In this document: piece by piece, positions 113 to 58,061 of the stretch
How positions within the stretch are numbered: the stretch's first letter is position 1
How the letters are laid out: each line of letters begins with the position of its first letter
NCBI RefSeq assembly: GCF_008801715.1
Contig: NZ_VZPG01000001.1
Span: 682,001 to 746,000, forward strand
Direction of reading: 5' to 3'
Length of the DNA stretch: 64,000 nucleotides
Source: Pseudochrobactrum saccharolyticum
GTDB lineage: Bacteria > Pseudomonadota > Alphaproteobacteria > Rhizobiales > Rhizobiaceae
Position numbers and translations under genes: made by a program
The notes under the pieces: model-generated
Seen by the model: the letters and a program-made list of their open reading frames with translations, nothing else
What the model was told of the DNA's origin: nothing
Database searches by the model: none

Positions 113-216
113 AGAGCATTTCCAGTATCAATGAAAATATCAGAAATGCTCTGTCTCTTTGTTCTTATCGCATTATCCGGACGAAAAACCGGTTCCCACT
201 TTTTCTGGAAATGCTC
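113..216 (+). repeat. AGAGC-ended palindromic repeat (long class)
   Basis: The element starts AGAGCATTTCC and ends GGAAATGCTC, so its ends are inverted. Inside are a second GCTCTGTCTCTTTGT segment and a CGGTTCCCACTTTTT block. The same blocks recur at 32711-32812 and, inverted, at 57917-58061. It ends 24 bases before the GTG start of the binding-protein gene and so lies in the leader of the purine operon. Confidence 0.75.
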
Positions 217-240
217 CAACTCCGCAAAAGGACTTTAAAA

Positions 241-1260
241 GTGCTGAAGAAACTCATCGCCGCATCCACCATGGCGCTTCTGACCACAGCGTCTTATGCC
301 GCTGACAAGACCCTGACCATCTCGGTTTACGCTTTTGCGCAGGATGACTTCAAAGAAATCCTCTACAAGCCGTTTGAAGAAAAATGCGGCTGCAAACTGG
401 TTGTTGAAACCGGCAACAGCGTAGAGCGTCTGGCTAAAATGGAAGCCAACAAAGCCAGCCCAGTTGTGGATATGGCTGTTGTTTCCATGGCGGATGCGCT
501 GCAAGCCTCCCGTGCCGGTCTGATCGACAAGATCGACACAGCCAAACTGTCCAACTTTGACAAGCTCTACGACATTGCCAAAGACCCGAACAAAGACGGC
601 ATGAGCGTTGGCTACACCTTCTACGCGACATCCATCGTCTACCGCACCGACAAGATGAAAATCGAGTCCTGGGCAGATCTGCTGAAGCCTGAATATGCAC
701 CGCATATTGCTTTCCCGAATGTGACCACCAATCAGGGCCCGACAGCACTCTATATGCTGGAAAAATCCCTCGGCCATAATGAAGCTGATCTGAAAAACGC
801 CATTGCTGCGGTTGGTGAGAAATCCAACGATATCGTAACTTTCTACGTTAAATCCTCGCAGCTCGTTCAGCTGATGCAGCAGGAAGAAATCTGGGCAGCG
901 CCAATCGGCCGTTTCTCCTGGGCGCCTTTCACCAAGCTTGACCTGCCGCTCGGCTGGGCAACACCGAAAGAAGGCCAGACCGGCGGCATGAATGTGATGG
1001 TTGTTGCCAAGGATTCCAAGAACCGTGATCTGGCGCTCGAATTCATGGACTTCTGGCTCTCCACCGAAATTCAGACCAAGATTGCTGAAAAGCTGGTCGA
1101 CAGTCCTGCCAATAAGGAAGTCAAGGTTTCCGACGAAATTGCCAATAATCTCACCTATGGCGAAGAAACCGCTAAAAGCCTTCAGCTCATTCCGTCCGAT
1201 GTCGTTCTCGATAACCGTGACACATGGCTGAAAGAATGGAACGCCAAAATCGGCCAGTAA
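241..1260 (+). CDS. ABC transporter periplasmic binding protein (PotD/Fe-type, family 1), purine operon
   Basis: Periplasmic binding component of the ABC importer encoded by the next three genes. I start it at GTG 241 (339 aa): AAAGGACT lies just upstream, and the protein then opens with a typical Sec signal (VLKKLIAASTMALL) and an SYA-A-like cleavage site. The longer reading frame back to 70 would translate the repeat at 113-216. The mature part has the extended binding-protein fold of the PotD/thiamine/iron group. Two downstream enzymes act on nucleosides and adenine, so a purine base or nucleoside, or a related N-heterocycle, is the likely cargo. That is inferred from context; the binding-protein family alone would suggest polyamines. 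A terminator-like hairpin, a repeat and a second hairpin separate it from its permease gene. Confidence 0.85.
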   Translation: MLKKLIAASTMALLTTASYAADKTLTISVYAFAQDDFKEILYKPFEEKCGCKLVVETGNSVERLAKMEANKASPVVDMAVVSMADALQASRAGLIDKIDTAKLSNFDKLYDIAKDPNKDGMSVGYTFYATSIVYRTDKMKIESWADLLKPEYAPHIAFPNVTTNQGPTALYMLEKSLGHNEADLKNAIAAVGEKSNDIVTFYVKSSQLVQLMQQEEIWAAPIGRFSWAPFTKLDLPLGWATPKEGQTGGMNVMVVAKDSKNRDLALEFMDFWLSTEIQTKIAEKLVDSPANKEVKVSDEIANNLTYGEETAKSLQLIPSDVVLDNRDTWLKEWNAKIGQ

Positions 1261-1278
1261 TCCGGCCACAATAACAGC

Positions 1279-1321
1279 AGCTGCCCGTAACATTTTCAGT
1301 TCACGGGCAGCTTTCTTTTTT
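1279..1321 (+). terminator. Rho-independent terminator/attenuator after binding-protein gene
   Basis: AGCTGCCCGT (1279-1288) pairs perfectly with ACGGGCAGCT (1303-1312) across a 14-base loop, and TTCTTTTTT follows. It lies directly after the binding-protein stop codon and before the permease genes. It probably stops part of the transcription, so that the binding protein is made in excess. Confidence 0.8.
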
Positions 1322-55655: not shown

Positions 55656-55671
55656 ACCGGCCAAGGACATT

Positions 55672-56394
55672 ATGAAGCAACTCAGCTTTTTTGAAATCCT
55701 CAGCTTCGGGCCTGACGGCTGGGGGCAAGTTCTGCTCACCGGCGCATTAATGAGTGTTGCCCTTGCTGTGACCGGCTTTTTGCTCGGCGCAGTCATCGGC
55801 GTGTTCGGTGCCTGGGCAAAAATCTCAGGCGGACGGATTACCCGTACCATCGCGGATGGTTATACAACCATTATCCGCGGCATTCCTGACCTGCTGATTA
55901 TCTATCTGTTTTATTTCGGCGGCAGTGCAGCGATTACCGCAATCGGCAAACTGTTCGGCGCTGAAGGTTTCCTCGGTTTTCCGGGTTTCCTCGCCGGTAT
56001 GCTGGCTATCGCCATTTCCTGCGGTGCGCATCATACGGAAGTTTTCCGTGGTGCTTTCAAAGCCGTTGCCAAAGGCGAGCTGGAAGCAGCAACCGCCTGT
56101 GGCATGGGTCGCTGGCTGAAATTCCGCCGTATCATTGCGCCTCTGTCGCTGCGTCATGCGCTGCCGGGCCTTGGCAATGTGTGGCAGGTATCGTTGAAAG
56201 AATCCGCTCTGGTTTCCGTGACCGGCGTTGTGGAGCTGCTGCGTCAGGCACAGATCGGTGCCGGTTCAACCGGACTGCCATTCAACTTCTTCCTGATCGC
56301 CGGTGCCCTCTATCTGCTGATTTCGTCTGTTTCAGGCGGCATTTTGCAGTCCGCTGAGCGCTATTTCTCCCGCGGCGTGAGGAGAGCCCAATGA
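55672..56394 (+). CDS. Polar amino acid ABC permease (HisQ/OccQ-like)
   Basis: 240-aa inner-membrane permease of the histidine/octopine type. Early membrane segment near residues 18-45, then TIIRGIPDLLIIYLFYFGG near 64, and the EAA loop (EAATACGMGRWLKFRRI) near 140. It pairs with the next gene product and overlaps it by four bases. Confidence 0.9.
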   Translation: MKQLSFFEILSFGPDGWGQVLLTGALMSVALAVTGFLLGAVIGVFGAWAKISGGRITRTIADGYTTIIRGIPDLLIIYLFYFGGSAAITAIGKLFGAEGFLGFPGFLAGMLAIAISCGAHHTEVFRGAFKAVAKGELEAATACGMGRWLKFRRIIAPLSLRHALPGLGNVWQVSLKESALVSVTGVVELLRQAQIGAGSTGLPFNFFLIAGALYLLISSVSGGILQSAERYFSRGVRRAQ

Positions 56395-57125
56395 GTTTTG
56401 AATTCTTCGCTGAATCTTTCGTCGCTATGCTGGCGGGTCTGCCTCTGACCCTGAAACTGGCCGCGACTGCGATTGCACTGGGTGCCTGTCTTGCTCTGGT
56501 CATCGCGATGATGCGCCTGTCCGGCAATGTTGTGCTGGACTGGATTGCTCGTATTTATGTGTTTGTATTCCGCGGCACACCGCTGCTGGTGCAGATTTTC
56601 ATCATCTATTACGGCCTCAGCCAGTTTCCGGCGATCCGTCACTCTTTCCTGTGGCCAATCCTGCGTGAACCTTACTGGTGTGCAGTTATCGCTCTGACGA
56701 TGAACACAGCCGCCTATGCCGGTGAAATCATCCGTGGCGGTCTGCTATCCGTGCCTCATGGCCAGATTGAAGCAGCCAAAGCCTGTGGCATGTCGCGCTT
56801 CACCGCTTTCCGCCGTGTGGTCATGCCGCTTGCTATCCGTCAGGCACTGCCTGCCTATGGCAATGAAATGATCTCGATGGTCAAAGCCACCTCGCTGGCC
56901 TCGATCATCACGCTGATGGAAGTGACCGGTATTGCTGCCAAGCTGATTGCCGAGAGCTATCGCGCGATTGAAGTTTTTGTCGTTGCCGGTGCAATTTACC
57001 TGTCCATCAACTTCATTCTGACCCGTCTTCTGCTGCTGGCTGAATACCGTCTGACGCCATATCTGCGTCAGCCTGTTCCTGTCAGCGTACCGGCCAATAT
57101 TCCTACTGAAGGAAAAGCATCGTGA
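56391..57125 (+). CDS. Polar amino acid ABC permease (HisM/OccM-like)
   Basis: 244-aa inner-membrane permease. FVFRGTPLLVQIFIIYYGL near residue 59 and the EAA loop (EAAKACGMSRFTAFRRV) near 124 are family hallmarks; membrane segments lie near 15-40, 60-80, 95-115 and 190-220. It overlaps both neighbours by four bases (ATGA/GTGA). Confidence 0.9.
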   Translation: MSFEFFAESFVAMLAGLPLTLKLAATAIALGACLALVIAMMRLSGNVVLDWIARIYVFVFRGTPLLVQIFIIYYGLSQFPAIRHSFLWPILREPYWCAVIALTMNTAAYAGEIIRGGLLSVPHGQIEAAKACGMSRFTAFRRVVMPLAIRQALPAYGNEMISMVKATSLASIITLMEVTGIAAKLIAESYRAIEVFVVAGAIYLSINFILTRLLLLAEYRLTPYLRQPVPVSVPANIPTEGKAS

Positions 57126-57916
57126 GCAATACAGTATCCGCATCCGCACCGGTCGCGCTGAAAGTCGAAAACCTGCGCAAGAATTTCGGTCAGGTCGAAG
57201 TGCTGAAAGGTATTTCGCTCGAAGCCCGCGAAGGTGAAGTGATCTCCATTCTCGGCTCTTCTGGCTCGGGTAAATCCACATTGCTGCGCTGCATCAACCT
57301 TCTGGAAACACCGACATCCGGTACGGTCACCATTTCCGGTGAAACCATCAAGATGGCGCAGAACTCCAAAGGCGAGAGCTACCCGACCGACAAGAAACAG
57401 GTCTCGCGCATCCGCTCGGAACTCGGCATGGTCTTCCAGAGCTTCAATCTCTGGTCACACAAAACCATTCTGGAAAATGTGATTGAAGCGCCGATCTATG
57501 TGCAGGGGCGCAACCGCGCTGAAGTCATTGAAGAAGCGGAAGCACTGCTGGCGAAAGTCGGTATTGCCGATAAGCGCAATTACTACCCTTCACATATGTC
57601 CGGCGGTCAGCAGCAGCGTGCAGCGATTGCCCGCGCGCTGGCGATGAAGCCAAAAGTAATGCTGTTTGACGAACCGACTTCCGCACTTGATCCGGAACTG
57701 GTAGGTGAAGTTCTGCGCGTGATGCGCGGACTTGCTGAAGAAGGCCGTACAATGCTGGTCGTGACCCACGAAATGGGCTTTGCCCGTGACGTTTCCAACC
57801 GCGTTATCTTTGTACATCAGGGTCAGGTTGAAGAAGACGGCGCACCGTCGGAAGTCTTCACCAATTCCAAGTCAGAGCGTTTCCGCAAATTCATCAGCCA
57901 CGAAAATGCGGGTTAA
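57122..57916 (+). CDS. Polar amino acid ABC ATPase (HisP/OccP-like)
   Basis: 264-aa ATPase: Walker A GSSGSGKSTLLRCINLLE near residue 43, MVFQSFNLWSHKT Q-loop near 103, signature MSGGQQQR near 160, DEPTSALDPELVGEV near 184 and VVTHEMGFARDV near 218. The start is GTG 57122, overlapping the permease stop. The stop codon directly abuts the repeat element at 57917. Confidence 0.93.
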   Translation: MSNTVSASAPVALKVENLRKNFGQVEVLKGISLEAREGEVISILGSSGSGKSTLLRCINLLETPTSGTVTISGETIKMAQNSKGESYPTDKKQVSRIRSELGMVFQSFNLWSHKTILENVIEAPIYVQGRNRAEVIEEAEALLAKVGIADKRNYYPSHMSGGQQQRAAIARALAMKPKVMLFDEPTSALDPELVGEVLRVMRGLAEEGRTMLVVTHEMGFARDVSNRVIFVHQGQVEEDGAPSEVFTNSKSERFRKFISHENAG

Positions 57917-58061
57917 AGCATTTCCAGCAAAAGTGCGAAGCGTCTTCGCGGGGAAATCAGTTCGCTGGACTGATTTCTATTCCCACTTCGATACATAGGA
58001 TAATGCGTAAAGACAAAGAGACAGAGCGGCTCAAAAGTTCAATCCTGAATGGAGCCGCTCT
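57917..58061. repeat. AGAGC-ended composite repeat (largest copy)
   Basis: It starts AGCATTTCCAGC directly after the ATPase stop codon and ends GAGCCGCTCT. Inside are a CAGTTC/GGACTG hairpin (near 57957-57977), the inverted TAATGCGTAAAGACAAAGAG block shared with 113-216 and 32711-32812, and a 10-bp AGAGCGGCTC/GAGCCGCTCT stem (58023-58032, 58052-58061). It separates the ATPase and binding-protein genes of the amino acid operon. Confidence 0.82.

What the first reader, a model, noticed from the sequence alone, without database searches (positions are those of the whole stretch)
113..58061. A family of AGAGC-ended palindromic repeats sits inside operons
Copies or part copies lie at 1-20, 113-216, 32711-32812, 45243-45285, 52653-52699, 52950-53020, 55607-55655 and 57917-58061. 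They share blocks such as GCTCTRTCTCTTTGT, GCGTATCTTATCC, CCGAAAA/TTTTCGG and the end TACGCTCTA. Several separate genes of a single operon, so they are transcribed. The copies look modular (full, half, composite), as if built from exchangeable units. Small palindromic repeats are known in Brucella and rhizobia; whether this modular family and its operon placement have been described I cannot say.
Basis: partly seen in the sequence, partly recalled or inferred. Interest (0 to 1): 0.72.

Follow-up and report, generated by a model that had tools for sequence, protein, structure and literature searches.

The report
Mobile hairpin repeats with IS630-type ends
The repeats are about 100-base non-coding mobile DNA pieces, each folding into two hairpins, scattered between genes; they belong to a known kind of Brucella and rhizobium repeat, and their ends resemble those of IS630-family jumping genes, which gives that kind a likely and testable origin.

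Summary
The repeat family is real. A covariance model (R1) from 17 copies finds 134 matches in the window's genome (only 150 of 1847 candidates scored). Seven of the eight listed places hold copies, one weakly; 1-20 does not. By size, shape and host it is the Bru-RS kind of Brucella, and probably RIME and CIR too; the published letters of these were not available. Three Rfam 'sRNAs' of B. abortus (BASRCI27, BASRCI153, BASRCI408) match copies, below gathering scores.

What I add is an origin. Three of eight compared sites in same-genus genomes show an exact 2-bp target duplication, TA twice and CA once. IS630-family insertion sequences of relatives begin, after a duplicated TA, with GAGC (32 of 34 ends) and carry YTGRATC at positions 19-25, as the repeat's better-kept ends do. 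Best reading: a non-autonomous IS630 element (MITE). Half, composite and full forms of one orthologous copy show modules changing in place.

Operon placement is what untargeted intergenic insertion predicts: 81 of 107 placed copies lie between co-directional genes, 39 in the same and 42 in the opposite strand. Transposition itself was not shown, and the window's genome has no IS630 hit.

The parts
112..218 (+). Full copy: hairpin A (ATTTCC allele), linker B, hairpin C (C1 type); ends 22 nt before a likely GTG start at 241 (start not tested)
   Evidence: R1 102.9 bits; 113-216 folds at -26 kcal/mol, z -3.2, 0 of 200 shuffles as good
32710..32812 (+). Full copy (A1-like with C2) between two minus-strand genes; its end supplies the TAG stop of the ORF 32810-34663
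   Evidence: R1 86.2 bits; Rfam BASRCI408 on 32756-32814, E 1.8e-11, below gathering score; ORF ends
45237..45290 (+). Half copy (C2) in the loop of a host hairpin between a solute-binding protein gene and a permease gene
   Evidence: Same loop empty in G121, G123, G124; half in G096, G122; full in G125
45224..45301 (+). Host hairpin GTGCTGACCG/CGGTCAGCAC that holds the half copy
   Evidence: Empty form GTGCTGACCGC-TTTAT-GCGGTCAGCAC in three relatives
52653..52699 (+). Degenerate half copy (weak)
   Evidence: R1 23 bits, E 0.006; Rfam BASRCI408 22 bits, E 0.11
52905..53021 (-). Composite half: hairpin C with an extra palindrome (CAGTCCAGTGGACTG) at its top
   Evidence: Rfam BASRCI153 on 52913-53016, E 4.4e-9; BLAST recurrence; not matched by R1
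55607..55655 (+). Half copy (C5 type), 16 nt before a permease ATG
   Evidence: R1 51.4 bits on 55559-55655; site empty in G096 and G122, half in G123
57914..58062 (-). Composite full copy: A2, linker, C1 with an extra palindrome; supplies the TAA stop of the upstream ATPase gene
   Evidence: R1 61.4 bits; Rfam BASRCI153 1-214, 66 bits, E 6.9e-13, below gathering score 137; plain full copy in G123-G125, empty in G096 and G121, hairpin A alone in G122
1344..1445 (+). Second two-hairpin family with the same TAGAGC/GCTCTA ends
   Evidence: 83% alike to 48303-48356 over 54 nt; R1 23.9 bits
48303..48345 (+). First hairpin of that second family

Best explanation
The repeats are non-autonomous transposable elements (MITEs) of the IS630/Tc1-mariner family. 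Shown: a core of about 100 bp, GAGC...GCTC, sits between two copies of a 2-bp target (TA or CA) that occurs once in the empty orthologous site, at the three sites that can be read exactly; copies sit at different places in related species; the outer ends share with IS630-family ISs of the same bacterial group the start GAGC and, in the better-kept copies, YTGRATC at the same distance from the end. Inferred: an IS630 transposase, not found in this genome, bound these ends and moved the elements in trans. Each end has become a hairpin of its own (A and C), so the element folds as two hairpins joined by a T-rich linker. Modules are lost, gained or repeated in tandem, and the two arms of a stem change together; I ascribe that, without proof, to slippage and template switching on palindromes. 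Effects on the host look like by-products: copies supply stop codons and intercistronic hairpins, and some are probably transcribed with their operons.
For: Genome-wide family. Target duplication: C2:670764, G096 empty ATAT-TA-ATTTC, filled ATAT-TA-[AAGC..GCTC]-TA-ATTTC; C2:677906, G096 empty TT-CA-GCCC, filled TT-CA-[GAGC..GCTT]-CA-GCCC; L296:8462, own genome empty GAT-TA-ATC, G123 filled GAT-TA-[..]-TA-GTC. In 78 full copies the flanks lean to YTA..TAR: left TA in 43, right TA in 38, both in 26. In one operon, named Brucella species have the element at other junctions or none. IS630 ends: of 34 ends of 17 ISs, 32 begin GAGC and 2 AAGC, and TGRATC starts at position 20 in 24 and at no other tested position; 18 of 34 fit GAGC(A/G)(T/G)TTCC. 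Repeat ends, 81 full copies: left, exact TGRATC at 20 in 13, at 19 in one, nowhere else; right, at 20 in 4, nowhere else; a profile of positions 11-32 from 14 IS ends scores both ends above all of 1000 shuffles. Copies shown from eight named genomes: GAATC at 21-25 in 7 of 8. A3-C3 copies (GAGCGTGTCGCG) resemble ISs with AAGCGTGTCGC ends, one of them in the genome of Brucella tritici.
Against: No transposition was observed. The window's genome has no PF13358 hit, nor have G325, G211, G301 and G318, which carry R1 matches. Likeness to the ISs is confined to about 25 nt of each end, and only a minority of copies here keep the exact motif. Of eight sites compared only three show an exact duplication; at C2:677906 four other species read TT-A-GCCC; in G125 the left TA at L296:8462 lacks a T; two more sites look decayed (C1:1301539, C2:679693), three give no clear reading. 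The window's own sites gave no exact duplication. Three of nine TA-flanked terminal-repeat pairs in PF13358 loci have other ends, and one IS (L363) was added by its GAGC motif. ISRm10 itself (L395) has GAGCGGAACC and GAGCGGAATC, not TTCC; ISRm10-1 and ISRel6 loci gave no pair. Of 19 readable copies from other alphaproteobacteria 8 have the motif; all six from G293 do not. The shuffles ignore relatedness of copies. IS711, not an IS630 element, also duplicates TA at YTAR (PMC2266754, passages).
Confidence: 0.83

Rival explanations
1. The copies are regulatory RNAs, as three B. abortus loci that match them were published (BASRCI27, BASRCI153, BASRCI408).
For: Rfam matches; a review tabulates the three as confirmed by (R)T-PCR and says that BASRCI408 and BASRCI153 lowered lacZ reporters (PMC9751625, passages). 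Strong folding.
Against: More than a hundred dispersed matches, duplicated targets and IS-like ends; no fixed orientation to genes, 39 same and 42 opposite. A transcribed repeat copy gives an RT-PCR product without being a regulator. Single copies could still have been co-opted.
Confidence: 0.08
2. They are transcription terminators, attenuators or mRNA-stability hairpins kept for that function between genes.
For: Hairpins in both strands; 5 of 78 full copies have flank stems scoring 18 or more, 0.49 expected; by eye, several half copies lie beside terminator-like hairpins.
Against: Orientation to co-directional genes is even, 39:42; relatives lack the copy while the operon is intact; at 45243 the host hairpin exists without the element.
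Confidence: 0.1
3. They are MITEs of an IS5/IS427-type element (IS711-like), not of IS630.
For: IS711 duplicates TA at YTAR and a preference for Bru-RS is reported (PMC2266754, passages).
Against: Of 30 PF13340 loci returned, 5 gave a TA-flanked terminal-repeat pair, none with GAGC. A looser scan gave GAGCATCACATT/AGCATCACATT in L227, but that pair does not enclose the transposase match. The scans were centred on the locus middle, which misses the match in loci clipped by contig ends.
Confidence: 0.05
4. They are REP/BIME-type palindromes moved by a RAYT (IS200/IS605) enzyme.
For: Palindromic, intergenic, mosaic.
Against: The consensus shows no GTAG or CGTC tag, and insertion duplicates a target. 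RAYT genes were not searched for.
Confidence: 0.02

Closest known systems
Bru-RS1/Bru-RS2 (Brucella)
   Same: 103-106 bp palindromic repeats of two related types, IS711 targets at YTAR (PMC10800456, PMC2266754, PMC3163539, passages); many members in B. melitensis (table entry '222(69)' in PMC2267715, column heads not seen); R1 finds 99-145 matches in six Brucella/Ochrobactrum genomes
   Different: Published Bru-RS letters not available; no genome known to be classical Brucella was reached
RIME (Rhizobium-specific intergenic mosaic elements)
   Same: Intergenic mosaic repeats of rhizobia (PMC2573895, passages); R1 finds 75, 106, 133, 88 and 77 matches in five Rhizobium genomes and 57 in a Sinorhizobium
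   Different: Sequence identity with published RIME not tested (paper not held)
CIR (CcrM-associated intergenic repeats)
   Same: About 110 bp, two stem-loop arms joined by a linker, GANTC at one terminal loop (PMC2229807, section 7 read)
   Different: In this genome the motif is intact in a minority of copies; its fixed register suggests an IS630 subterminal motif. CIR letters not available
IS630 family, ISRm10 group
   Same: TA duplication, GAGC start, YTGRATC at 19-25 in 24 of 34 ends
   Different: About 1031-1083 bp between the TAs with a transposase; only 18 of 34 ends fit the repeat's GAGC(A/G)(T/G)TTCC, and ISRm10 itself does not
RUP (Streptococcus pneumoniae)
   Same: Small repeat proposed to be moved by an IS630 transposase (PMC2229807, passage)
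   Different: Other host and sequence (recalled, not compared)
Rfam BASRCI27, BASRCI153, BASRCI408
   Same: Alignments show full, composite and half forms of the repeat inside the models
   Different: Filed as B. abortus sRNAs; all matches here are below gathering scores

Membership tests
Bru-RS | About 103-106 bp palindromic repeat | tested here: met
   17 seed copies 100-107 bp; 72 of 81 full copies 99-107 bp; stems
Bru-RS | Abundant in Brucella | tested here: met
   99-145 matches in six Brucella/Ochrobactrum genomes, 150 candidates scored in each
Bru-RS | Sequence of the 1994 elements | not testable with these tools
   Paper not held; B. abortus letters seen only through Rfam models, which match below gathering scores
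Bru-RS | Bru-RS1 and Bru-RS2 downstream of zntA in B. abortus 2308 (PMC10800456) | tested here: inconclusive
   0 R1 matches in six TIGR01512 regions of G170, G192 and G164; none of these genomes is known to be classical Brucella
RIME | Sequence of RIME1 | not testable with these tools
   Paper not held
CIR | Two arms joined by a linker, about 110 bp | tested here: met
CIR | GANTC in one terminal loop | tested here: inconclusive
   GANTC in the A loop in 14 of 117 matches; TGRATC in register in 13 of 81 left ends; GAATC at 21-25 in 7 of 8 copies of named genomes
MITE of IS630 | TA target duplication | tested here: met
   TA exact at two and CA at one of eight sites; others decayed or unclear
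MITE of IS630 | Ends shared with an autonomous IS | tested here: met
   GAGC and in-register motif; likeness about 25 nt only
MITE of IS630 | No coding capacity | tested here: met
   Full copies about 100 bp; 4 of 117 matches overlap a called ORF by more than 30 nt
MITE of IS630 | Moved in trans by the IS transposase | not testable with these tools
   Needs an assay
REP | GTAG or CGTC tag at one end | tested here: not met
   Consensus of 17 copies, by inspection

The most novel reading that the evidence does not exclude
Bru-RS, RIME and CIR, named separately between 1994 and 2003, are one alphaproteobacterial family of IS630 (ISRm10-group) MITEs in which each transposon end has turned into a hairpin. 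The GANTC motif thought to mark CcrM control is the transposase's subterminal site, several published Brucella sRNAs are transposon copies, and young subfamilies are still spreading.
Probability: 0.62. Interest if true: 0.62.

Novelty: new member of a known kind. Interest (0 to 1): 0.52.

Why it matters
Repeats of this kind have been masked, cited as IS711 targets or filed as sRNAs. [quoted passage not shown] A candidate transposase group and a target duplication turn that into an assay in harmless strains. It also warns that counts of BASRCI153 and BASRCI408, listed among the most abundant bacterial sRNAs (PMC9029176, section read), may partly count transposon copies.

Tried and rejected
Parent among IS5-type elements: 30 PF13340 loci, no TA-flanked pair with GAGC. 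Host hairpin loops as a general target rule: only 5 of 78 full copies. Strand bias: 94 plus and 40 minus matches, not tied to GC skew; in another genome 21 of 21 listed matches lie on one strand with 28 of 965 candidates scored, so I take it for an effect of the capped candidate list, untested. Operon preference: none. zntA test of Bru-RS: no match and no classical Brucella known to be reached. Printed copies of the repeat: six short words, 0 papers. GANTC without register: 14 of 117, near chance by a rough estimate of mine that no call made. Site C2:667860 and the window's sites gave no readable duplication. Searches for a printed link between these repeats and IS630: (repeats alone: 7, 8, 37, 49); the passages I saw do not state one, but most subscription papers and ISfinder were out of reach.
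Full report
Check of the observation. The window holds copies at 112-218, 32710-32812, 45237-45290, 55607-55655 and 57914-58062 that match a covariance model (R1) built from 17 full copies of the same genome (alignment, model, matches). A composite half copy at 52905-53021 is missed by R1 but matches Rfam BASRCI153. 52653-52699 is weak; 1-20 is not matched. R1 finds 134 matches at E<=0.01 in the genome, with 150 of 1847 first-look candidates scored; BLAST with one copy finds 40, with 40 of 78 scored. 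Stems co-vary: 93.8% of cells pair, 10 of 27 pairs have two-sided changes, 0 of 500 shuffles reach either; the number of pair types is ordinary (165 of 500).

Anatomy. A full copy is hairpin A (AGAGC-ATTTCC or AGAGC-GGTTCC, loop at best TTGAATCRTTGG), a T-rich linker B (TCTCTTTGTTTTTACGC) and hairpin C (for example GCATTATCC..ACGCAAAACCGGTTCCCACTTTTGC..GGAAATGCTCTA). By eye on 117 matches there are at least four A types and five C types in several combinations, among them A1-C1, A1-C2, A2-C1, A2-C2, A3-C3, A4-C4 and A2 with C3. Some C hairpins carry an extra palindrome at their top; L157, L195 and L022 hold C units in tandem.

Change in place. At 45243 the host hairpin is empty in G121, G123 and G124, holds a half copy in the window's genome, G096 and G122, and a full copy in G125. 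At 57917 the site is empty in G096 and G121, holds a plain full copy in G123, G124 and G125, hairpin A alone in G122, and the composite in the window. At 55607 it is empty in G096 and G122 and half in G123. Half and composite copies are most simply derived from full ones; the direction is inferred. The sites at 52653 and 52950 could not be aligned.

Mobility. In the operon of an M20 peptidase, two permeases, an ATPase and a binding protein, Brucella tritici (L031) has copies at the permease-ATPase junction and after the last gene, B. rhizosphaerae (L032) one at the peptidase-permease junction, and L033-L037 none at these junctions, though four of them have matches elsewhere in the locus. Eight sites were compared in same-genus genomes. 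Exact duplication: TA at C2:670764 (G096 empty; G121 and G124 empty but reading ATAATA), CA at C2:677906 (G096 empty; four other species read one base less), TA at L296:8462 (own genome empty, G123 filled; in G125 the left side lacks a T). Decayed: C1:1301539, C2:679693. Ambiguous or not readable: C1:1308718, C1:1305455, C2:667860. At C1:1305455 the second element of a tandem shares a TA with the first, as if inserted at its end. In 78 full copies the flanks read mostly Y-(T/C)-A before the core and T-R-R after it; TA stands on the left in 43, on the right in 38 and on both sides in 26.

Source of the ends. A scan for TA-flanked terminal repeats, blind to their letters, gave 9 pairs in the 30 IS630-type (PF13358) loci returned: 6 begin GAGC or AAGC and 3 do not; L363 was added by its motif. 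In 30 IS5-type (PF13340) loci it gave 5 pairs, none with GAGC. Twelve plasmid loci chosen by similarity to one of the ISs (L368) gave 10 pairs, all GAGC, among them an IS annotated ISRm10 in S. meliloti; the ISRm10-1 and ISRel6 loci gave none. Over these 17 ISs, 24 of 34 ends have TGRATC starting at position 20 and none elsewhere: 17 of 20 named and 7 of 14 unnamed ends; 18 of 34 fit GAGC(A/G)(T/G)TTCC, ISRm10 not among them. Of 81 full repeat copies, 13 left ends have the motif at 20, one at 19, none elsewhere; 4 right ends have it at 20, none elsewhere; a profile of positions 11-32 from 14 IS ends scores both ends above all of 1000 shuffles. The shuffles do not correct for relatedness, so the register is the stronger point. 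The copies shown from eight named genomes carry GAATC at 21-25 in 7 of 8. Of 19 readable copies from six other alphaproteobacteria, 8 have the motif at 20, six of them near-identical copies of one genome (G314); six copies of G293 lack it. A further 16 PF13358 loci gave 5 pairs: L420 (GAGC) and L427/L435 (AAGC, two loci on one IS of B. tritici) enclose the transposase match; L423 and L434 (other ends) do not. A3-C3 copies resemble the AAGCGTGTCGC ISs. The window's genome has no PF13358 hit; one same-genus genome, G123, has such an IS. L386 shows a truncated IS630 whose end runs into linker B and hairpin C.

Range. R1 matches at E<=0.001 occur in 85 of 121 genomes of the same family, own included, and in 18 of 20 named genomes: Brucella/Ochrobactrum 99-145, Rhizobium 75-133, Sinorhizobium 57, Ectorhizobium 101, Microvirga 31, Allorhizobium 29, Phyllobacterium 27, Falsiroseomonas 7, Cohaesibacter 5, Mangrovicella and Brenneria 0 (150 candidates scored each, E-values rough). 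At E<=1e-5, 16 of 141 other genomes of the class match, 28 candidates scored each.

Place among genes. Of 117 matches, 81 lie between co-directional genes, 16 between convergent and 10 between divergent ones, 4 overlap a called ORF and 6 had no neighbour in the locus. Genes were called by a codon-usage script trained on 42 window ORFs, all of which it recovered, so it is no independent test. Orientation is 39 same and 42 opposite; 28 of 81 have both gaps of 100 nt or less. The window's own junctions are 47, 4 and 4; gaps in window and loci together 166, 37 and 25 (all). Operon copies need no targeting. Five of 78 full copies sit within flanking inverted repeats, 0.49 expected.

Known names. 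Bru-RS: table entry of PMC2267715 (passages); IS711 duplicates TA at YTAR and a preference for Bru-RS is reported (PMC2266754, passages). RIME: rhizobial elements of unknown function (PMC2573895, passages). CIR: two arms and a linker with GANTC at a loop, mechanism of mobility open (PMC2229807, section 7 read). A 2024 review of prokaryotic MITEs names CIR and holds the words IS630, Brucella and rhizob- zero times (PMC10969869, word counts and passages). Rfam BASRCI27 aligns with a full, BASRCI153 with a composite and BASRCI408 with a half element; all matches are below gathering scores, I think because the models also hold flanking DNA. A review lists the three as PCR-confirmed B. abortus sRNAs (PMC9751625, passages).

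Verdict. A known kind of repeat in a further species, with a well supported link to IS630 ends that I did not find in print with the searches named.

Noticed in passing
window 50778-50878: A different repeat, TACCAAGGCG...CTTTGGTA, absent at this site from the six same-genus genomes compared, with TCA on both sides (3-bp duplication); other listed copies are 87-94% alike. Looks like a second, younger MITE.
   Followed up: partly
window 1344-1445, 48303-48345; L190:35-140: A second two-hairpin family with the same TAGAGC/GCTCTA ends but other interiors.
   Followed up: partly
L296:6059-6165: Subfamily A4-C4: many listed copies in this genus are 86-97% alike, apparently the youngest burst; its ends carry TTGGATC at the IS630 position.
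   Followed up: partly
L157:428-594, L195:1390-1606, L022: Tandem arrays of the linker-hairpin C unit.
   Followed up: no
L386:1391-2013 (G008): Truncated IS630 whose end is joined directly to linker B and hairpin C, as if the IS stood where hairpin A stands.
   Followed up: partly
L296:8462 in G125 and G123: The same TA site holds elements with different hairpin A alleles in two species: two insertions or exchange in place.
   Followed up: no
G293 and G314 copies: Near-identical copies, many at contig ends, in two other alphaproteobacteria, suggesting recent spread and assembly breaks.
   Followed up: partly
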